Shown in pieces: positions 6,135 to 63,990 of a stretch of DNA of 64,000 nucleotides (position 1 is its first letter; every line of letters starts with the position of its first letter). The stretch is taken from the NCBI GenBank assembly GCA_034509735.1, contig JACGWO010000005.1, positions 26,158,383 through 26,222,382 on the forward strand. Reading direction: 5' to 3'. The notes under the pieces were generated by a model. It was not told the origin of the DNA. It saw nothing but the letters and a program-made list of their open reading frames with translations, and searched no databases. A program made the position numbers and the translations under genes. This DNA comes from Sesamum alatum. Lineage: Eukaryota > Streptophyta > Magnoliopsida > Lamiales > Pedaliaceae.

Positions 6135-7400
6135 TGATCGGTTGTCGAAGCCGTCAAATATAAAAACTGATTATAAACTGTAGTAGTCGTGGAACCAGGT
6201 CGAATCCCAAGGGAACTATCGATTAATTTCTCGATCTAGATGTAGTAACCAAAAAGGGGGTATGAATTGAATACTAATTATGAATGAACTAAATTAACAA
6301 AAGCAAGAGTAAAATAACTAAGATGAGATTATAGATGAAAAAGTCGAATTCGAGGGGGTTCGTCTCACCAATCGTTATGTTTATCATAGATCACTAAGGG
6401 TTTATTCCATAACCAAGCATTCAACTCCGGAATTCATTAGGATAGCCGTAACAAATTCCCGTTTTTCTATCGTAGTGGATTTGACTCAAGCATCTGAATC
6501 CAAACTTATTATATCAAGACTGGGCATGATAGCGTTCCATATCACATCAATAATAGCATTTGCATCATTAAAAACAGTTGAATCTAGATCAAATAACCGA
6601 GATAGCTGCAATTATCTAATCTAGTTTTCTCGTCCTCACAAATAAATCATGCAAAGCACATAATAAATTTGATCGCTACTCATACCACTCATTCATGACA
6701 ATTACGGATCACTGAACTCATGGATAGCAATAGAATAATTAATATCGAATCGAATTATCAGATCTATCAATAATAATCATTCCGTTCACAGTAAATCAAG
6801 ACGAGAAATACTTGGCGAAATCAGATAAATTCAAGACCTCAAAACAAAACAATAGGGTTTAACATTTTCCTTGAATTGGAATAGAAAATTAGCTACTAAA
6901 CAGAAGCATGAATTCAGAGGAAGAGAGAAAAACAATGATGAGAAGATGATTTTTCTCTGCGTTCTAGTCTCCCTTTTATAATTGAGAGTCCTCTTCCTAC
7001 GCTATTTTAGAGTCCTCTTTTCGTGCCAACTCCAGAGTTCTCTTTTCGTGCCAACTTCAGAGTCCTCTTCTAAACCCGCGCAGACCTGGATGTCGGTTAA
7101 GGCGTGATCACGCCTTAGTAGTTGTTCAAGTCTGCTCATTCAAAACTCTTCTTCTCTTCCCTCGCAGACTCCGGTTTCGGATAGGGCATGATCATGCCCT
7201 AATGGTTGTTCAAGTCTGCTCATTACTATTTTGTATTTGATCACTTTCTGTCTTTATTTGGGGCTTAACTCCTTTTCTTCACAACTGGTCAATCTCGATC
7301 CTTCATTTAAAACTGCATAACTCGATAAAAAATGTAAAGGAAACCTTTAAAAAACCATTCGAGTTAAGCATGCATATGAGAGATGAAATGCACCCTATCA
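6135..7400 (-). repeat. 5' LTR of the Athila-like element
   Basis: A 1266-bp LTR, bounded on the minus strand by TGATAGGG at 7400 and CCGATCA at 6135. It contains palindromic GGCGTGATCACGCC-type motifs near 7100 and 7185. The same arrangement is present in the left LTR, which confirms the pair. Confidence 0.92.
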
Positions 7401-19829: not shown

Positions 19830-21284
19830 CTAGCAATCCACGCACACGCGATGCGTGAATAAATAAAAATCAGTTACGATAAAGATATTAATATACATTA
19901 ATTAAGCGTTTAAATCACATACTTTGATCGACTTGAATACATAGCATCAAGTGAAACGAAGTAAAATAAGAAAAAAACCAAATATATGTACATATATCAT
20001 CCAAATAAATACGTGATTCGAGATATATAAATCTAAATATTTGCAAAAACATAAATATAAATATTGTTAACAAAATTATACAACCTTTTCCTTTTACCTA
20101 CATTAAAAGAAAAATTAAATATGTTAAATATATAAGGTAATTATAAATTTGTATATTATAATCTAACTTACATAATAATATAATTACCTATCAGTTGACC
20201 TGCTCACTTAGTTGTATTCAGGGACATTCACATGTCACTTTTGGTAACGATGATCTTAATACTATAACTGTGTTAAAATAGAAAAAGAAATATTATCTAT
20301 CTATACTATTATAGAAGGAAAGGTTGTTTTCCTCTAATAATTGTCGGTTACGTCATATTTTTAGCAATTTTTTCAATTTTTCCCCTCCAAACAAAATTGG
20401 ATTTTAAGTTGAAGAAGTGTATATATTAGGATTGTTAAGGATAAAATGAAGGGTAAATTACAACTACCTCCCCTGAGGTTTGGCATAAATAAAAATACCC
20501 CATCGTTGTTTGAAAAATTACAAATACTCCCCTGAGGTTTGTAACTGTCTAACAAGTAACCCATTTCCATTCAATTTTATTGATGAACTGACCACAATGC
20601 CCTTATGCAAATTGAATTTTTTTAATTTAATTCTTAATTTGTTTGAATTTTTTTAGACTACAATGCGTTGGGAGGGGTTTCGTAAGTGTTTTACACAAAT
20701 GAGCAACAATGCAATTTGTCTCGACTAATTTTTCTACAATTTAAAAAAGAATTCAAGGGCAAAATGGTCAATTTCAGGCCTTTGGTTAACAATTACAAAC
20801 TTGAGGGGGGTATTTGTAATTTCTCAAACAACAAGGGCGTATTTATAATGATGACAAACCTGAGGGAAGGTGGCTGTAATTTACCCTAAACTGAAATAAT
20901 CCCAAAAAATGAGTTAGTTCTCATACCAAAATAATGTTAATCCGATTTTGCCATCACTATATAACAGAAAATTACGTGTAGATTTATAAATGAATAAAAG
21001 TTGCAAACGTACGTAAGTACATTAATAAAACAACAACCATAAGAATGAAGAGGAAAAAAAATAAGTTGCAGTTGTATCTTTTTTTTGTGTGTTTTAATCA
21101 AATATGTTAAAATTATAAAATCAAAACTCCTTCATTTTTTATCAACTCCTCCTTTTTTTATCCTTGATAATCCTAATAAATACAGTTCTTCAACTTAAAA
21201 TTCAATTGTGTTGTGGAGGGAAAAATTTGAAAAAAAAAATCCTAAAAATACGAGATAACAACCTTTATTTTATAATAGTATAGA
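19830..21284 (-). mobile_element. Non-autonomous Helitron hosting a MITE
   Basis: On the minus strand the element starts TCTATACTATTATAAAAT at 21284, preceded by A. It ends GCGTGGATTGCTAG at 19830, followed by T. A CACGC-ATC-GCGTG hairpin lies about 11 bases before the terminal CTAG. Insertion between A and T, a TC start and a hairpin plus CTAG end are the Helitron hallmarks. No helicase is encoded. The 436-bp MITE at 20451-20886 is nested inside. A second, inverted copy of the first ~145 bases of the 5' end lies at 20300-20441. Confidence 0.75.
20451..20886. mobile_element. MULE-type MITE, GGGTAAATTACA family (copy 1)
   Basis: Long inverted ends of about 95 bases begin GGGTAAATTACA and contain CCTCCCCTGAGGTTTG and ATTACAAATACTCCCC. 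The flanking nonamers TAAAATGAA (20442-20450) and TAAACTGAA (20887-20895) differ at one base, a 9-bp target duplication as made by Mutator-like elements. No coding sequence. Confidence 0.85.
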
Positions 21285-28677: not shown

Positions 28678-29969
28678 ATTTTTTGTATGTTTTCTTTTAC
28701 TACTATATTTGAATGTAATTTATTTTTAATGTATTGTTACTAAATGATTACAAACTAATTATTTATTGACTATTGCTATAAAACTATAATCAAATTGGAC
28801 AATAGTACCAATATTCGTATTGTACCACCTTATAATGTATATTAATTTTATTTCAGTATCAACTTTTTTGTATTGTCAAAATATTATTTACATGCTTTAT
28901 TAGCTTCTCAATTTTGAAATATATTATATAAAATTTTATTTTTCACCTTTATATTGCATATATTCTATATATTTTTAGTTTGACTTCTTGACTTATTTTC
29001 ATATGCATCTAATCTATATAATCTATTTCTTATTCAATAATATATTATTTTACAACTTAATCTTTTATGTCACATTAATATAAAAAATAATAGATGTAAA
29101 AATAAAGCATTCAGAATTATACTAAGAGATTCACTGAATAGTTTAGTTTTCATAAGTAATTTCAATTTAATAATATTCGATTCCTATATCAATTTTTATT
29201 CTCTTTTGTAATCATGCTTTTTAAACTTTTAAGTTATTTTTATAATATATTTCTGAAAAAATATATTAATTTTTTTTAATTTCAACATAATTAACTCATT
29301 TTTTATTATTATTGTATTGTATTGAGTTTATTCTCAAAAACTATTAATTTTCTTAATATGAAAATGTAATTGTACTAATGTGTTAGTATACAATTATTTT
29401 AAAATCTTATACTTTTAATTGTTATTGTGTTAATGTTTACTCACCATTTGACTTTTTTTTTATTTTCGTAAGGAAAAATAACATTTTTCATCCTGTAAGT
29501 TAGGTCATTTCCATTTTAATTTGATCTGTTGGTTTTGGCATTCTCACTTTTTGGTCCCATTAGTATTAAGAAGTAGCAATTTTGGTCCCATAACACCTGT
29601 TTCTTGCATATTGAATATAAAATATTATGTGGCCGTTAAGTGCATAATAGTACAAGGGGGCCAAATATTACAACTTTTATGTATCTTTTAAAGCATAAAA
29701 ATACTTATATTTGTCTTGTTAGGACCCAAGATATGTTAATTAATTTACTGCTTAATAAGGTAAGATTTTAAATTAAATTATTTATTATATTACAATTTAT
29801 ACTCTTCTTCAATGTCAATGTCGTTGGGGGGGTGTATGGTGTTTTTAGCCTATTAATATTGAAATAAAATCGATCAGTCAGAAGTCATCACTCTTTTAAA
29901 AAAATTCAATAGCACTTCTAATTTAATCAAATTGATAATTTTTATTTGTAATTAAATTTTAATACTTAT

Positions 29970-35754: not shown

Positions 35755-36391
35755 GAGGAAATAGCATTTTTGGTTTTATAAGTTAGCTTTTTTTACTTTT
35801 AGTAACATTTTTTATGGAATTAGTATTTTTGGTCCCATATTTTATAAAAAGTAGCATTTTTTATTCTCTTCCACTTTTTCATTTGTAATTTAATGGCGAA
35901 AGTCGTGTGCCCATGCGTGGCCATTAAGTATTTTTGTTTGGAGGAAAAATTGATGCGTTTTCTAGCTTGACAACACCTGGCGGATGGGCAAATATAACTA
36001 CTTTGAGGGGGGAAAAAATCTTGAAGGAAATCAAGGCAGAAAAGGGAAATTTCTCTCTTCTCTCACTAGAATTAAATCAACCCTTCCCATATTTGTATAA
36101 AGTCCCCTTGTATTAATTTTCTTCAAGATTTATTATTTTCCCTCAAAATAGTTATATTTTCCCCTAAAATATTGTCAAACTAGAAAACGCATCAATTTTT
36201 CCTCCAACCAGAAAACTTAACTGCTACGTGGTGGGCATATGCCCGTCATAGTTAAATTACAAACGAAAAAGTAAAAGCAGTCTAAAAGTATAAATTTTTT
36301 ATAAATTACAAAATCAAAAGTTCTAATAGCGTAACGGATGGTACCAAAAATTAAAAGGGCCTAACTTATCGAATAAAAAATCCTGTTCCCC
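35755..36391. mobile_element. Foldback element with ~270-bp inverted arms
   Basis: The left arm (35755-36030) and right arm (36115-36391) are inverted copies. Both contain GGAGGAAAAATTGATGCGTT, GGCATATGCCC/TGCCCATGCG and ATAAGTTAG. The flanking nonamers CCTCATTTA and TGTCATTTC agree at six of nine positions, a possible decayed Mutator-type duplication. The open frame at 35934-36116 runs across the arms and is not a gene. Confidence 0.75.
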
Positions 36392-37663: not shown

Positions 37664-37923
37664 GGTAAATTACAGTGATACCCCTTGAGGTTAGACCAAA
37701 ATACACAAACACCCTCTATTTTTATTAAAATTACAATTATATCCCCTGAAATTGTAATTGTATTACAACTACACCCCTATTCAAAGGCAAAAACTTATAC
37801 TAATACCCCCTGAAAAATATTACACTAACACCCCTCAGGGGGTATAGTTGTAATTTCGCAAAAGACATGAAATATTTGTGTAATTGGGTATATAACATCA
37901 AGGGCTGTCAATGTAATTTACCC
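37664..37923. mobile_element. MULE-type MITE, GGGTAAATTACA family (copy 2)
   Basis: Starts GGTAAATTACAGTGATACCC and ends TCAATGTAATTTACCC, with repeated CCCCTGA-type blocks inside. Flanks TATTTTTTA and TATTTTCTA are a 9-bp duplication with one mismatch; the 3' LTR has a single TAATTTTTA there. The internal sequence matches the partial copy at 50229-50385. Confidence 0.75.
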
Positions 37924-37960
37924 TATTTTCTATACATAAGACACACCACAAAAAAATATA

Positions 37961-39215
37961 GGAGGGTAGCAATATTGGTCTTACAAGAATCGATTTTCGC
38001 AATATTGTCCTCTAACTTTGAAAATTTGATAATTTTGGTCCCATTTGGCCGGAAAGCCCCAATTTTAAAGGTCATGTACTCGACTCATGCGCTTTTCCGG
38101 CGAAAAGGACCAAAATTGCCAAATTTTCAAAGTTACAGTACCAAATTGCAAAAATCAATTCGCGCAGGACCATAATTGCTAACCCTAAGTTATAGGATGA
38201 AAATTGCAATTTTTCCATTTCTTTGTCGATTTGTTTAGCATTGCCCTCAATACAACATGTGCTAAGAACACATTTGCTGGGTCTGAAAATCATATCTTAT
38301 GGCTCTAATTTTTTAAATTATATATAGATTTTATTAATTTATTTTCTCCAAAGGATAAAAAGTAGGTGAATTTTTAGTAAAAGATAATATTTTTATAGTC
38401 TACTTGTTCAACGCTACCATTGCCAAGCCCTTGCTGGGGGCATGTTAACTTGCGAAGCTTGACAAAATATATTTTTAAGTCTCTAATTTTTACAATTAAA
38501 AGGCGTTATTAATTTATATTCTCTATGAGTACAAAATAATGGAATTTTCAGCAAAACAATATGAATTTTTGTAGTCTATTTGTTCACCACTTCCTTAAAC
38601 ACACCCTATGTTGGCAGCATGTTAATATACAATACTTGAAAATTTAAAATTTTTATGAATCTAATTTTTTGAATTATGGACTTTATTCATTTATTTGCTC
38701 TAAAAAGAGTAAAAACTATGTGAGACTTCTAATAAAAATAATATTTTTATTAGTCTATTTGTTCAACACAACCCTCACCAAGCTACGGGCATGTTGATTT
38801 ACAGAGCTTGAAAAATATATTTTTAACACTCTAATTTTTCAATTGTAGAAATTATTATTAATTTATTTTTTTATGAGGGGCAAACAAAGTGGAATTTTCA
38901 GCAAAACAATATGAGCTTTTTAGGGGGAAAATTGCAACTTTCATCCTGTAACTTAGCGGGGTGACAATTTCAGTCCTGTATGAATTAATTTTCACAATTT
39001 AGTCCTATAACTTCTAAAATTTGACAATTTTGGTCCCATATCGCCGGGAAGCCCCAATTGTCAAGGTCATGAGCCCGACACATGCATTTTTTCGGCCAAA
39101 AAAGACCAAAATTGCTAAATTTTGAAAGTTACAGAACTAAATTGCGAAAATCAATTCGTACATGACTAAAATTGTCACCCCCACTAAGTTACAAGATGAA
39201 AATTATAATTTTTCC
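37961..39215. mobile_element. Composite foldback/tandem-array element (copy 1)
   Basis: AAAAATATA flanks the unit on both sides (37952-37960 and 39216-39224) and occurs once at the empty site in the 3' LTR, so the 1255-bp unit inserted as a whole. It consists of a palindromic module (37961-38217), four tandem units of about 177 bases (starting near 38226, 38402, 38579, 38758), and a second palindromic module (38923-39215). The palindromes carry GGCCGGAAAGCCCCAATTTT and its complement and AACTTTGAAAATTTGA-type strings. Units one and three resemble each other more than they do two and four, so the array is a dimeric repeat. No coding capacity. The 9-bp duplication suggests mobilisation by a Mutator-like transposase. 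Confidence 0.8.
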
Positions 39216-39321
39216 AAAAATATATACCTTACCACACCCTAAAACCCCCAATTCCACTATAAACACTGAAAATATCATTTTCTAATACAAGTTACTATTT
39301 ATGATTTGACTACACATATTA

Positions 39322-40181
39322 GGATAAATCTCATTTTGGTCCCATATATTAGCTCCAGTTCAATTTTGGTCCCAATCATTATAAAAATCTCAATTTCAGG
39401 ATAATATCTTTTGATTTGTCGCAATTTTGGTCACAACGTTAGAAATTGACGAAAAAATGTTAACTTCCATTAAATCGAGGCACGTGCCCCTCACATGTTT
39501 TGTATACCTTGTGTATTGGGGCAAAATCACATAATTCTAATGCTAATTTCTTCCCCAAATCCCTGCCCTTTCCTCAGCAAAAGATCCTTGTAAGCCCTTC
39601 TTTTTTTTTTTTTTTTGAATCTCTTATCGAAGAAGTGAAAGAGCAACAAATTATTGTGAGAAGGATGAGCCTTCGAGACCCAAAGTTCAATGATTTCCCA
39701 CCATCCGATTACCGTAAGTTATTCCTCTTTCTTTTTTTTTTTTTGATTGTTGATGTTTGCTGAAATTTGAAAAAAAAAATAATGTGAATTTGTGTTCTTT
39801 AGTGTTTATACATGTTGACTCCATTTTTTTGGTAGAAGCCGAATCACTTATTGACTCCATTTTTTCAGAAATTGAAGCGGAATTTGGGTAAAGAAGGAAG
39901 AGAAAAAATCGTGTATGAATCATAATTTGAGATTTTCCCTAGCCTTTTCTGTCATTAAATGTATATATTTGTATATATTTGTCCCAAATACGTAAGGCAT
40001 ACCGAAACATGTGAGGGGCACATGCCTCGATTTAATGGAAGTTAACATTTTCCATCAATTTCCAACGTTGGGACCAAAATGAAGACAAATCAAAAGATAT
40101 TATCCTGAAATTGAGATTTTTGTAACGATTGGGACCAAAATTGAAAGGGCTAAGATATGAGACCAAAAATGAGATTTATCC
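39322..40181. mobile_element. Foldback MULE-type MITE with ~190-bp inverted ends
   Basis: The left end GGATAAATCTCATTTTGGTC and the right end are inverted copies over about 190 bases, including TTAATGGAAGTTAACATTTT and GTGAGGGGCACATGCCTCGA. ACACATATTA is present on both sides (39312-39321, 40182-40191) and once in the 3' LTR, a 10-bp target duplication. The centre has T-rich runs and no gene. Confidence 0.9.
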
Positions 40182-44400: not shown

Positions 44401-45810
44401 TGACAGAGTCGCCACAGAGGAGGAGGTAGAAGTTATGTGCACGGATCTAGCACCTCCAAGTTGGAAGAAGAGATCGTCAAATTCCTAACTAATGGGACAA
44501 CACTCAAAAATAAAAAAAGAAGCTCGGGCCTTGAGGGTGACAGCATCCTGTTTTGTGATGATCAGCGGTGGGTTAAACAAACGTGGTTTCTCGCAACCTT
44601 TTCTAAAATGCCTAACTCTTGAGGAGGGTCACTGCGTCCTAAGGGAAATACATGAGGAAATTTGGAAATCACCTCGGCGAGAAAGCACTAGCAGGGAAAG
44701 TTTTGAGGTAAGGTTTCTTTTGTGCCACAATGCTCCTAGATGCTTATGAGCTGGTGAAACGTTGTCGCGCGTGCCAAAAATACGCGAACATCAACCACCA
44801 GCCAGCCATTAATGCAAACCCTTGAAAGGCCTTGTCCATTTGATCAATGGGGTTTATACTTGGTCGGACCATTTTCGTAAGCCACATGACAGAGAAAATC
44901 TTTTATCATGGTCGGCGACTACTTCACGTAGTGGGTGGAAGCCGAACCCTTAGCCATGATATCCGATAAAGAAGTGATCAACTTTCTTTGAAAGAACATC
45001 ATTTGTCGCTTCAACATCCCTCGCGCTCTGGTATCCGACAATGGAACTCAGTTTTGGGGGACCAACCTTAAGGATTGGTGCAAAGGATTGGCGATTAAAC
45101 AATTTTTCACCTCAGTGATCAATTCGCAAGCAAATTGTCAAACTGAAGTCACCAATTGAACAATCCTCCAACACTTAAGACTAGGTTGGAAACCTCCAAA
45201 GCAACATCGGTAGATAAACTCCCTACTGTTTTATGGGCATACCGGACGACGCCGAGGGCGGCTTCCGAAGAGTCATCCTTTACTCTATCTTATAGGACGG
45301 AAGCCGTAGTGCCAACAGAAATAGGAGAGAGCAATTGGAAAGTAAAATACTATGATTAAACTTCTAACCAACAAGGCTTGAGGGCGAACATAGACTTAGT
45401 CGAGGTGGTAAGAGAAAACGTTGCGGTGCACGCTGCAATGACAAAGCCAGGATGGCAAAGGCATATAGAGCAGAGTTAAGCCAAGGAATTTTCAGTTTTG
45501 GCGATTTGTTGTTGAGAAAGGCCAAAGCTTCCGGTCCTATAGGGAAGTTCTACCCGAAGTGAGAAGGTCCTTATAAAGTCATGGAGATCGTGAATGCAGG
45601 AGCCTATAAGTTGCAACAGCTAGATGGGAAAGATCATCTCACGCACTTGAAACGTCGTGAACCTTAAGAAATATTATGCCTAAAGGCTAACCAGGAGGCA
45701 GAGTTCCCCTTTTGACTCTACATTTATAGGACTAGAATAGGAGATCAACATTTCATCCCCTTCCCTTTTGGCTAGTTTCCTTTCCAATCGTTATGGAACT
45801 TTGTAGCTTG
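44401..45810 (+). pseudogene. Integrase of the Tat element
   Basis: The zinc finger region is split over frames: GHCVLREIHEEIW, then DAYELVKRCRACQKYANINH (about 44740-44810). The catalytic core has VGDYFT, a stop, WVEAEPLAM, ALVSDNGTQFWG, and SQANCQTEVTN, so the D, D and E residues can be seen although stops interrupt the frame. 45156-45359 gives LPTVLWAYRTTPRAASEESS and FTLSYRTEAVVPTEIGE. The first copy of the C-terminal region (45403-45720) has several stops. Confidence 0.8.
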
Positions 45811-46219
45811 AAGAGGTAAGAGAAAAAGCCGCGGTGCGCGCTGCAATATACAAAGCCAGGATGGCAAAGGCATATAATGCGAGGGTTAGACCAAGGAATT
45901 TTCTGGTGGGCGATTTGGTGTTGAGGAAGGCGGATGCTTCCGGTTCTATAGGGAAGTTAGACCTGAAGTGGGCAGGCCCTTATAAAATTGTGGAGATCGT
46001 GAATGCAAGAGCCCATGAGTTGCAACAACTGGATGGGAAGAGCATTCCACGCACTTGGAACATGGGGAACCTTAAGAAATATTATTCCTAAAGGCTAACC
46101 AGGAGACAAAGTTCCCCTTTTGACTCTACATTTGTAGGATTAGAATAGGAGATCAACATTTCATCCCCTCCCCTTTTGGTTAGTTTCCTTTCTAATCATT
46201 TTGGAACTTTGTAGCTCGA
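45403..46219 (+). repeat. 408-bp tandem duplication covering the integrase C-terminus
   Basis: 45403-45810 and 45811-46219 align end to end with an offset of 408 bases, including the stretch GGCAAAGGCATATA and the untranslated CTTTTGACTCTACATTTATA-like trailer. The first copy has stops and small indels; the second is open. Confidence 0.9.
45834..46091 (+). pseudogene. Second, open copy of the integrase C-terminal domain
   Basis: An 85-residue frame reads KARMAKAYNARVRPRNFLVG, DLVLRKADASGSIGKLDLKW, AGPYKIVEI and ends NMGNLKKYYS. It is a complete integrase C-terminal region (GPY-type) with a stop at the expected end, while the copy preceding it is broken. On its own it has no catalytic core. 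Its better preservation could reflect a later duplication or gene conversion from an intact element. Confidence 0.75.
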
Positions 46220-46515
46220 ACTTAAGCAATGAAGTTAATTTTTCCGTCGGAGTTTGAAATTTCGCGATGTAGAGATCCCTACACCTTCGAGAAGTCCTTT
46301 GAGGCATCAATGAGTGCTCTAGGACCCCATGGACGATACTTCATTGAGATCCTCTTTAGTTATGTTTCCACGAAAAATTTGCCCCCCCTTGAAGTTGGTA
46401 GAAGATCAACTTCGAGACACGAACAAAACCACCCCTTGAGGCAACCTCCGACAAGCATAAGTTAAAAACACAAGTTTTATATATCAAGTGCAATGATCAA
46501 ATTCACAAGCGCTAA
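46220..46515 (+). other. Non-coding 3' region of the Tat element
   Basis: An open frame at 46229-46465 has no recognisable homology. The stretch lies between the end of pol and a tandem repeat. Confidence 0.4.
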
Positions 46516-49358: not shown

Positions 49359-49621
49359 TGATGGATATATTCGTAGTATCAAATTATTATTAGGCGTACG
49401 GGAGTAATTTTTATACACACACCAAAAAATATACACCGTACCATACCCTAAAACTCCCAATTCCACTTTCAATACTAAAAATATTATTTTTTTTATACAA
49501 GTTATTATTCATGATTTGACTACACATATTACTCAAAAATTCTCTCACTAGATTTGGGGTGTGATTGTGTCGTGGGTAATTTTTCCCGATTATTTCTTCA
49601 ATCCAAACCACAACCACTTCA
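49359..49621 (+). repeat. 3' LTR of the Tat element, uninterrupted
   Basis: 263 bp from TGATGGATATATTCGTAG to ACAACCACTTCA. It retains the unoccupied forms of all three insertion sites that are filled in the 5' LTR. Confidence 0.88.
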
Positions 49622-51330: not shown

Positions 51331-51751
51331 GGGTAAATTACATCTACCTTCTCTTAGGTTTGGCATAATTACAAATACCCCCTCGTTATTTGAAAAATTA
51401 CAAATACCCCCTTGAGGTTTATAATTTTTAACCAAGGGCCTAAAATTGACCATTTTGGCCTTGAATTTTTTTTATTTAAATTATAGAAAAATCGGCCAAG
51501 ACAAATTGCATTATTGCTGCTCTGTGTAAAAAGAAACCTCTCCATCACATTGTAGTCCAAAAAAATTTTAAAAATTAAATAAAAATAATTCAGTGCATAA
51601 GGGCATTTTGGTCAATTCACCCATAAATATTGATGAAAATGGGCTATTTGTCAGACGGTTACAAACCTCAGGAGGGTATTTGTAATTTTTCAAACAACGA
51701 GGGGTATTTGTAATTATGCTAAACCTCAGGGGAGGTAGATGTAATTTACCC
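51331..51751. mobile_element. MULE-type MITE, GGGTAAATTACA family (copy 4)
   Basis: 421 bp, inverted ends of about 95 bases, flanked by GAAAAAAAA and AAAAAAAAA (9 bp, one mismatch). The interior is the reverse complement of the copy at 20451-20886. Confidence 0.88.
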
Positions 51752-53133: not shown

Positions 53134-53410
53134 GGAAAAATTTCAAGCAACCCCTGTGATATTACAAATGAGTAAATTATTCCCTATAAAAAAATATATA
53201 GCAATTTATCGTCCTGTGCTTTTTAAAATAAAGCAATTTATCCGCTGTGTTTTTTAAAATGAGGCAATTGACCTCCCTAGGCAGGGAGGTAAATTGCTTC
53301 ATTTTAAATAACACGGGGGGGGGGGGGGTAAATTATTTTTTTTTAATTTTTTTATAGAGGGATAATTTGCTCATTTGCAATATCACAGGAGTTAAATTGC
53401 ATTAAATCCC
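53134..53410. mobile_element. Palindromic MULE-type MITE
   Basis: Nearly complete palindrome centred on CCTCCCTAGGCAGGGAGG (53270-53287). TCAAATATT flanks both sides (53125-53133, 53411-53419), a perfect 9-bp duplication; the left direct-repeat copy at 51072-51080 shows the empty site. A G run lies at 53315-53328. Confidence 0.9.
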
Positions 53411-55412: not shown

Positions 55413-56711
55413 GGGAAAATAGCAATTTTCATCCTGTAACTTAGAGGGATTGACAACTTTGGTCTTGCACGAATTAATTTTTGTAATTAGTCCTGTAACT
55501 TTGAAAATTTAACAATTTTAGTCTCATATGGCTGGAAAGCTCCAATTTTAAAGGTCATGTGCCTGACACAAGCGTTTTCCAGCCAAAAAGACCAAATTTG
55601 CTAATTTTTCAAAGTTATAGGACTAAATTGTAAAAATCAAGTCGTGCACAATGAAAATTGCCATCCCCTAAGTTATAGGATGAAAATTATAATTTTCCCA
55701 GTTATTTAGTCCTTTTGTTCAGCAGTGCCCTCTGCACACCCTATATTGGGGCATGTTGATGCACGGTGCTTGAAATTATATTTTTATGACTCTAAATTTT
55801 TGAGTTATGAACTTTTATCATTTATATTCTCTAAGGGAGGTAAAATAGGTGATCTTTTAGTAAAAATAATATTTTTATAGTTAACTTGTTCGCACTACTC
55901 TCGACTCTCTTACTAGTGCATGTTGATTTGCGAGGCTTGAAAAATATATATTTCAGGGCTCTGTTTTTTAACTAAATGACGTTATTAATTTATTTTTTTA
56001 ATGAAAAGTAAAAAAAAAGTTGGAATTTTTAGAAGAAAAAAAATTACAAATTTTTTTAATTTATTTTGTTCAACAATACCCTCAGCACACCCCATGTTGG
56101 GGGAGTATTGACTATGATGCTTTAAAACTATATTTTTATGGCTCTAAGTTTTTGAAATATGGACTTTATTTATTTATTTCTCTAAGAGGAGTAAAAAGTA
56201 GGTGAATTTTTAATAAAATATAATATTTTTATAGTCGTTGTTTAGCACAACCCTCACCAAATTCCATGTTGAGGACGTGTTGATTTACAGGAGTTGAAAA
56301 AGATACTTTTAAGATTGAAAAGTTATTTTTAAGACTCTAAATTTTCAATTATAGATGTTATTAATTTATTTTCTCTATAAGGAGTAAACATAGTTGAATT
56401 TTCAACAAAAAATACAAGTTTGTTTAGGAAAAAATTGCAATTTTCATCCTGTAATTTAGGGGGCGGTTTTGGTCCTGCACGGATTAATTTTTACAAATTA
56501 GTACTATAACTTTGAAAAATTGGCAATTTTATTCACATCTGGCCGGAAAGCCATAAATGTAAAGGTCATGTCTAGACACGTGTTTTTCCGGCAAAAAATG
56601 ACTACAATTGTCAAATTTTCAAAGTTACAAGACTAAATTGCAAAAATTAATTCGTACAGGACTAAAATTGTCAACCCCTCCAAGTTTCAGGATGAAAATT
56701 GCATTTTTTCC
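55413..56711. mobile_element. Composite foldback/tandem-array element (copy 2)
   Basis: Same architecture and orientation as 37961-39215: palindromic module (55413-55700), four ~177-base units (starting near 55713, 55885, 56065, 56237), second palindromic module (56430-56711). Flanking nonamers TCCAAAATT and TTTGAAATT agree at six of nine bases. The left module here is complete, whereas copy 1 lacks about 35 bases of it. Open frames inside are not conserved between copies. Confidence 0.75.
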
Positions 56712-62343: not shown

Positions 62344-63990
62344 ATGTCAAATTCTCAGTTTCAATCTTCACCTACTGTAGACTTATCAGATGCTCAAGGC
62401 GTAAATATGTTTCAAAATCAGGTCAGTGGTGATAATCTTGACTTTTAGCATGATTGTGATGTTGAAAAGGGTACGGGTATATCAGAGGATGAGGATGACA
62501 ATCTACTTGATTCTAGGAAAAGAAAAAAGAGGCTAATGATTTCAAGATCACCTTGGTAGGATCATTATCATAAATTCTATTGTGAAAAGGATAAAGTTCA
62601 AAAGGCTAGATGCAAATATTGCAGTAGGGAAATCAAAGCTGATCCAAAAGTACATGGAATTAGGCCTTCGAAGAACCACTATGAATCCTGCAAGAAGAAA
62701 CCTCATGAAGTTTCCACCAATCAGGCTAGATTATCTTTTCAATCAACTTGTTTAGGCGAGAAAGATGCCCCTCTTGTTAATTGGAGATTTGAGCAAGACA
62801 AAATTAGAGAGGCTTTGTCTTACATGTTGGTTGTAGATGAGCTCCTATTTAAAATGGTTGAGAATCTCGGATTTAGACATTTCATGTCTGTTGCTTGTCC
62901 AATGTTTGCTATTCCATCAAGAAGGACAATAACAAAAGACATTTTTCAAATGTACGTGAATGAAAGAGTAAAATTGAAGTCATTTATTAAAAATCATGCT
63001 CAAAGGGTTTGCATCACCACTGACACTTGGACATCTATCCAGAAAGTCAATTATATGTGTCTCACTGCTCATTTTATTGATGGTGATTGGAATTTACATA
63101 GGGGAATTTTGAACCTTTGTCCAATTATCGGACACAAAAGTAAAGAAGTGAGTAAAGGTGTTGAGAAATATTTGCTTGAATGCGGTATTGATAAGATTTT
63201 TACTGTTATGGTTGATAATGCATCTTTTAATGACGGGGCCATGGTTTACTTAAAAAAGAAGCTTAAAAGTTGGGGTCACAACATTTTAGGTGGTAAATAT
63301 GTGCACATGAGGTGTGTGGCACATATAATTAACCTTGTGGTTCAGGATGGTTTAAAAGGCAAGGATGAGCATGATGCCATCTCTCGTATTAGAGGGGCCG
63401 TTGGGTATGTGAGAAACTCTCCGGCTAGGTACAAGAAATTTCAAGAATGTGCCGAATTTATGGAAACCAAAAATATGTTGTCTCTTGATGTACCTACTAG
63501 ATGGAACTCCACCTACTTGATTAGAAGTTCCGACATGTCTTAAGAGAGCATTTGATGCTTATGAAGACATAGATCTTGCTTATCGGACTGATCTTTCAAA
63601 GAAGCCATTTGATGGGGTTCTGATTGAACACGATTGGGATAGAGCAAAGCTACTATTGAAGTTTTTGAAGCATTTTTACCATCTCACTTTGTGCATTTCT
63701 GGTTCTTCATATATCACATCTTAATATTGTCTTTCATGAAATATGTGAAGTTGATTTGCTTCTCAGACGGTGGTTGAGTAGTTATGATATTGAGTTAAGT
63801 GAGATGGCAAGAAAAATGAAAGAAAAATATGACAAGTATTGGGGATCAATTGAAAAGATGAATATGGTTTTGTATTATGGTGTGATTCTTGATCCACGTC
63901 AAAAATTGGGATTTGTCGAATTTTCCTTTAACAAATTATATGGTGGTATTGGAAAAAGTGATGAAATGAAAAAAAAAAAAAAAAAGTAAG
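62344..63990 (+). pseudogene. hAT transposase (BED zinc finger type), decayed, 3' end outside window
   Basis: The ATG at 62344 follows the splice acceptor. In-frame TAGs lie at 62446-62448 and 62557-62559. A BED-type zinc finger is next (CKYCSREIKA to HYESC, about 62620-62690). From 62815 the catalytic part is open for 242 residues: RVCITTDTWTSIQKVNYMCL (first Asp), FTVMVDNASFNDGAM (second Asp), HMRCVAHIINLVVQDGLKG, and LDVPTRWNSTYLI. A one-base shift near 63538 moves the frame to LKRAFDAYEDIDLAYRTDLS, and another near 63720 to ICEVDLLLRRWLSSYDIELS and YYGVILDPRQKLGF. The C-terminal dimerisation domain is not reached. A poly-A run at 63968-63986 adds a Lys run in the frame. Non-functional as it stands. 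Confidence 0.85.

What the first reader, a model, noticed from the sequence alone, without database searches (positions are those of the whole stretch)
37961..39215. Composite mobile unit: two palindromic modules around a dimeric ~177-bp tandem array
The unit is flanked by a perfect 9-bp duplication (AAAAATATA), present once at the matching site of the 3' LTR, so modules and array moved together. A second full copy with the same order and orientation lies at 55413-56711. Units alternate in type (1 and 3 alike, 2 and 4 alike), like a higher-order satellite. A MITE carrying a satellite-like array could seed new satellite loci. I know of no named element with this layout, but could not search.
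Basis: partly seen in the sequence, partly recalled or inferred. Interest (0 to 1): 0.8.

Follow-up and report, generated by a model that had tools for sequence, protein, structure and literature searches.

The report
Hairpin-ended transposon carrying four repeats
A plant jumping DNA about 1.3 kb long, with a long hairpin at each end and a short, nearly fixed block of four related repeats in the middle, moves as one piece; it looks like a new variant of known hairpin-type transposons rather than a seed of satellite DNA.

Summary
Copy A (37961-39215) has a palindrome at each end, four ~175-bp units between, and a perfect 9-bp AAAAATATA duplication; the 3' LTR keeps the empty site. Copy B (55413-56711) has the same layout at 75% identity, with only a 6/9 duplication. 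Forty genome places were scored and fetched; with copy B, 37 of 41 have both modules and all four units in order. Of 29 with intact ends, 15 have perfect 9-10-bp duplications and 8 have one mismatch; swapped flanks gave 0 and 10 of 812. Modules and array keep together: 29 of 30 fetched array loci carry both modules; 38 of 40 module hits adjoin array DNA. Satellite seeding is not supported: units group by position, no decomposed locus exceeds four units, and an exact junction motif occurs at most three times per locus. The two palindromes are direct repeats. Best reading: a nonautonomous Mutator-type foldback composite with a fossil array, perhaps captured when a palindromic MITE landed in an older tandem array. 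No transposase was linked to it.

The parts
37952..37960 (.). left copy of the 9-bp target duplication AAAAATATA of copy A
37961..38216 (+). left palindromic module of copy A, about 31 nt of its outer end missing
38231..38921 (+). array of copy A: units 38231-38403, 38404-38579, 38580-38758, 38759-38921 (1 and 3 alike, 2 and 4 alike)
38925..39215 (+). right palindromic module of copy A, direct repeat of the left one
39216..39224 (.). right copy of AAAAATATA
49425..49433 (.). empty site: AAAAATATA once, in the 3' LTR (coordinates from the flank match)
55413..55699 (+). left palindromic module of copy B
55715..56424 (+). array of copy B: units from 55715, 55886, 56066, 56238
56429..56711 (+). 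right palindromic module of copy B; flanking duplication weak (TCCAAAATT / TTTGAAATT, 6 of 9)

Best explanation
It is a nonautonomous Mutator-type foldback composite transposon. Each end is a ~290-bp imperfect palindrome (M). Because M is its own inverse, two M copies in direct orientation still present matching inverted sequences at the two outer ends. Shown: the whole M-4u-M unit inserts with 9-10-bp duplications at many loci; the modules are direct repeats; the array is inherited as four fixed, diverged units. Inferred: a Mutator-like transposase supplied in trans cuts at the outer ends, and the array is passive cargo. Inferred origin (about 45% likely by itself): M inserted once into an older ~177-bp tandem array, M plus four units was duplicated in tandem, and one M-4u-M segment was then mobilised.
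For: Empty site and perfect duplication for A. Of 29 intact copies, 15 perfect and 8 one-mismatch duplications against 0 and 10 of 812 swapped flanks. 37 of 41 sources complete and in order. Array and modules co-occur. Units group by position: 5 label changes where 3 is the least and 68.9 the shuffled mean. All modules point the same way. Array starts and ends at the same unit phase with about 9 bp of overlap. Consensus L/R modules 92.4% alike, same-type units 81.5-82.5%, cross-type 72-77%, although modules vary more between copies than units do, so the array looks older than the module pair. 14 modules examined singly have no duplication of their own, 0 of 14.
Against: No transposase was linked to these ends: the PF10551 search did not complete. 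6 of 29 intact copies, B among them, have no good duplication, and none of the 8 damaged copies passed the automatic test, copy A included. The L/R split in the tree is not clean: two changes are forced and the bootstrap had not settled. Gene conversion between modules could make L and R look younger than they are. No locus with M inside a longer array, and no module-free array, was seen. The 9-base match of the array ends (7 of 9) is partly due to the array's own periodicity.
Confidence: 0.8

Rival explanations
1. The array arose inside the element: a spacer between two modules was multiplied in tandem (monomer, dimer, two dimers) after the module pair had formed, rather than being captured from an older array.
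For: No module-free array was found. Unit numbers of three and perhaps two occur. Short direct repeats at both ends of the array could drive slippage.
Against: Units differ more from each other than the two modules do, although units vary less between copies.
Confidence: 0.35
2. Satellite-seeding element: the array expands and contracts and gives rise to long arrays elsewhere.
For: Tandem, dimeric organisation; some variation in unit number; precedent in Tetris (passages).
Against: Units are inherited by position; none of 41 plus 30 partly overlapping decomposed loci exceeds four units; the junction motif occurs at most three times per locus.
Confidence: 0.05
3. Two independent MITE insertions flank a short local array, or copies spread by segmental duplication, so it is not one mobile unit.
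For: Each module resembles a complete hairpin MITE. One cluster on C82 near 28.48-28.67 Mb could be segmental.
Against: The duplications lie outside the whole unit and differ between copies, with an empty site for A; no duplication around single modules in 14 of 14 examined.
Confidence: 0.02
4. It is a foldback element of another superfamily that also makes ~9-bp duplications.
For: No transposase was linked to it here.
Against: 9-10-bp duplications and long inverted ends match the MULE definition in PMC3310237 and the description of MuTAnT and FARE1 as MULEs.
Confidence: 0.12

Closest known systems
FARE1 (Arabidopsis foldback, now classed with MULEs)
   Same: Described as a foldback carrying long palindromic repeats on both ends (as reported in PMC4486113, passages).
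   Different: Internal four-unit array and direct orientation could not be compared; the original paper is not held.
MuTAnT (Medicago, Mutator-like)
   Same: A 292-bp MULE hairpin element with 144-bp TIRs, very like one module here in size and form (PMC4486113, passages and one section).
   Different: Targets TA microsatellites; most are 200-300 bp; no composite with an array in what I read.
MULEs with multiple TIRs (tomato and others)
   Same: Extra TIR copies, one outer 9-11-bp duplication, none around the inner TIRs (PMC3310237, parts 1-4 of 6).
   Different: TIRs mostly in tandem at each end; no tandem array as interior in what I read.
Tetris (Drosophila virilis foldback)
   Same: Foldback with ~220-bp tandem repeats inside a transposon (passages).
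   Different: The array lies in the TIRs, varies in number, gave satellite arrays and shares 37 bp with the flanking TIR domain; here number is nearly fixed and no module-array similarity was found at E 1e-3.
Tm1 (Meloidogyne Mutator/foldback)
   Same: Foldback-type ends, mostly 9-bp duplications, Mutator-related (passages).
   Different: The repeats are a ~14-bp motif inside the TIRs.
miDNA4 and Xstir (Xenopus MITEs with satellite arrays)
   Same: MITEs holding tandem arrays; for miDNA4 capture of a pre-existing tandem repeat was proposed (review PMC12628747, passages).
   Different: miDNA4 is Tc1/mariner and its array varies in number; originals not read.

Membership tests
Mutator superfamily (MULE) | 9-11-bp target duplication | tested here: met
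   15 of 29 intact copies perfect at 9-10 bp, 8 with one mismatch, control 0 and 10 of 812; copy A perfect
Mutator superfamily (MULE) | long terminal inverted repeats, typically 100-500 bp | tested here: met
   self-inverse ~290-bp modules at both ends, so the outer ends are inverted repeats
Mutator superfamily (MULE) | mobilised by a mudrA-like transposase | not tested
   PF10551 search did not complete
Foldback transposon | ends that fold back on themselves | tested here: met
   z -11.5 for the right module of A, the one module folded; inverted arms in all four window modules
MITE (nonautonomous) | no coding capacity, many copies, target duplications | tested here: met
   no ORF of 150 aa or more in either window copy; 40 places scored of 1034 candidates; duplications. 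At ~1.3 kb it is long for a MITE
FARE (named family) | sequence relatedness to FARE | not tested
   paper not held
MULE with multiple TIRs | extra TIR copies without a duplication of their own | tested here: met
   0 of 14 single modules have a duplication; the four window modules best 3 of 9. Tandem orientation as in tomato is not met: here arms are inverted within each module
Tetris-like array-bearing foldback | array unit related to the TIR | tested here: not met
   no module-array match at E 1e-3 within the window
Satellite DNA | long, homogenised tandem arrays | tested here: not met
   at most four units in decomposed loci, at most three junction motifs per locus, units group by position; unassembled or diverged arrays not excluded

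The most novel reading that the evidence does not exclude
A palindromic MITE acts like a bacterial insertion sequence: being its own inverse, any two copies, even in direct orientation, can form a composite transposon. Here such a pair captured four repeats of an older tandem array, froze them, and spread that array fragment through a plant genome by Mutator-type transposition.
Probability: 0.45. Interest if true: 0.55.

Novelty: new variant of a known kind. Interest (0 to 1): 0.4.

Why it matters
It gives a plant case in which self-inverse ends make a composite transposon out of direct repeats, and in which a tandem array travels without expanding. That is a counter-example to the idea that arrays inside MITEs readily become satellites, and suggests a simple route by which foldback MITEs could pick up neighbouring DNA.

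Tried and rejected
Satellite seeding: I looked for long arrays with units 2-3, an exact junction motif over the genome and by decomposing loci; none seen. The DNA search skips very common words, and diverged or unassembled arrays would be missed.

Solo modules: 14 of the 40 scored module hits lay outside known composites and looked solo. Short stretches showed array DNA on the left in 12 of 14 by alignment (left-flank scores 60-108, right flanks 9-27), one more (L088) by the array match beside it, and one (L086) by eye only. Weaker module-like stretches outside composites exist: 9 places in 8 of the 40 sources held (226 kb), two of them in the window; two further sources show array pieces (L025 a 26-base match, L035 its own displaced unit). 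One of these stretches, 29465-29700, does not fold better than shuffles.

Sequence words in papers: 0 hits. Viral-contig scan with a module core: 0 hits. Host: a hAT fragment at 62815-63543 has named matches in many dicots, among them Sesamum, Cinchona and Primulina; Lamiales is a guess.

First duplication count (12 of 31 perfect, 18 of 31 with at most one mismatch; control 0 and 1% of 930) was replaced with better end-finding; both automatic versions miss the duplication of copy A because its left end is shortened, and the hand result stands.

Not answered, so left open: units of type 1 alone and Mutator transposase genes.

Full report
WHAT IS THERE. The window is AT-rich (64% from the base counts), TE-dense DNA that I take to be plant. 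Copy A runs from 37961 to 39215: a left palindrome, four ~175-bp units starting at 38231, 38404, 38580 and 38759, and a right palindrome at 38925-39215. Copy B (55413-56711) has the same order and direction, 75.4% identical over 1287 columns. The right module of A folds at -68.8 kcal/mol against a mean of -24.6 for shuffles, z -11.5; the array of A does not stand out, z -0.5. No ORF of 150 aa or more lies in either copy.

INSERTION. Copy A sits in the 5' LTR of a retrotransposon whose 3' LTR keeps the empty site: AAAAATATA twice around A and once in the 3' LTR. The LTR pieces differ at 27 of 256 aligned sites, so A inserted after the LTRs had begun to diverge, while A and B differ by about 25%; the layout is thus probably older than the insertion of A. 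The duplication around B is 6 of 9, a level reached by 1.7% of random pairs.

GENOME-WIDE. The assembly has 527.7 Mb in 89 contigs. With the whole of A as query, 40 places were scored out of 1034 first-look candidates; all 40 were fetched. With B, 41 sources were decomposed: 37 have both modules and all four units in order, with both modules on the strand of the array; L035, L037, L038 and L039 are truncated or interrupted in the stretch held; none has more than four units. Of the 37, 29 have both ends intact: 15 perfect 9-10-bp duplications, 8 with one mismatch, 6 without, B among these six; swapped flanks gave 0 perfect and 10 with at most one mismatch of 812. The 8 damaged copies passed nothing in that automatic test; one is A, whose perfect duplication was seen by hand.

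TOGETHER OR APART. Array to module: with units 2-3 as query, 40 places were scored of 325 candidates, 35 of them already known; 30 were fetched, 29 of them known; 29 of 30 have both modules and the other has the right one only. Module to array: with the right module as query, 40 were scored of 1109. Of these 25 lie in composites already decomposed; of 14 others fetched, 12 adjoin array DNA by alignment, one more by the array match next to it, and one by eye only; one (C82:32131404) lies about 3.5 kb from a composite lacking its right end and was not read. So 38 of 40 are shown to adjoin array DNA. Candidates beyond the 40 best of each search were not scored. With copy B as query, 40 places were scored of 945; apart from B itself, 27 match almost the whole query at 73-77%, so B is an old, isolated copy with the same layout.

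NUMBER OF UNITS. Four is the rule in the loci read. From coordinates alone, three units fit C79:44785857-44786962, C82:30847542-30848682, C82:16170226-16171383 and C77:13171575-13172660, and two fit a loop spacing of 639 at C82:10543691. Ranking by best match works against short arrays, so these may be under-counted. An exact junction motif has 88 matches in the genome (control 0) at 73 loci, at most three per locus. A module-loop motif with up to two mismatches has 234 matches (control 0), of which 100 were listed; 38 of the 100 have the exact unit motif within 1.3 kb on the same strand and 0 on the opposite strand; 9 of 13 neighbouring loop pairs are 911-1007 bases apart, as four units predict.

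EVOLUTION. The eight window units split into odd and even types (support 100/98, first of 35 splits). With 124 units from 31 copies, units group by position: 5 label changes, least possible 3, shuffled mean 68.9; the odd/even branch has 100/100. Left and right modules also separate largely, with 2 changes against a shuffled mean of 21, but a clean split is rejected by the starred branches and the bootstrap had not settled. The array is thus four fixed, diverged paralogues copied by transposition. In the consensus L and R are 92.4% alike, same-type units 81.5-82.5%, different types 72-77%. Between copies, units agree with the consensus at 0.93-0.94 and module parts at 0.82-0.92, so slow-changing modules do not explain why L and R are closer than the units.

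MECHANISM. The loops show that all four window modules point the same way (6 of 6 pairs). An ordinary TIR element has opposite ends; here each module is self-inverse, so direct copies still give inverted outer ends. The array begins and ends at the same unit phase with about 9 bp of overlap, as if one module had landed in a unit and left a 9-bp duplication, followed by tandem duplication of module plus four units. Shown: whole-unit movement, direct modules, nearly fixed array. Inferred: Mutator transposase in trans, captured older array. The match of the array ends is partly due to the array's own periodicity, and an origin by internal amplification remains a serious rival.

KNOWN KINDS. The MULE features (9-11-bp duplication, long TIRs) are taken from PMC3310237, of which I read parts 1-4 of 6; they are met, and the transposase was not tested. 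FARE1, a foldback with long palindromic repeats on both ends, and MuTAnT, a 292-bp MULE hairpin, were seen in passages and one section of PMC4486113. Foldbacks or MITEs with repeats: Tetris (PMC4079207, passages), Tm1 (PMC3169594, passages), Muta1 (PMC5225508, passages), miDNA4 and Xstir (review PMC12628747, passages; PMC9659126, passages). Palindromic MULE ends as direct repeats around a four-unit array were not met in the listings of nine open-access searches.

LIMITS.

Noticed in passing
39322-40181: A second foldback-type insertion in the same 5' LTR: inverted arms of ~206 bp at 87.5% and a perfect 10-bp duplication ACACATATTA.
   Followed up: partly
37664-37922: A third insertion in the same 5' LTR, with ends GGTAAATTACA..TGTAATTTACC and an 8 of 10 duplication; similar ends at 51331-51751 and 20450-20887. 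All three insertions start GG and end CC.
   Followed up: partly
35757-36390: A ~634-bp imperfect palindrome (69%) starting GGAAATAGCA; no clear duplication.
   Followed up: no
45400-46220: A 408-bp unit present twice in tandem (86%) in the stretch between the two LTR copies that flank this region.
   Followed up: no
1-1129 and 6274-7400: A direct repeat of ~1.1 kb at 96.4%, perhaps the LTR pair of a younger retrotransposon.
   Followed up: no
G000:C82:28484402-28666537, outside the window: Five unit-motif matches and five module-loop matches on one strand within ~180 kb, perhaps a local amplification of a variant copy.
   Followed up: no
53149-53393: A 245-bp weak palindrome with ends AACCCCTGTGATATT / AATATCACAGGAGTT and no duplication found.
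   Followed up: no
62815-63543: An ORF of 242 aa related to hAT-type transposases of plants.
   Followed up: no
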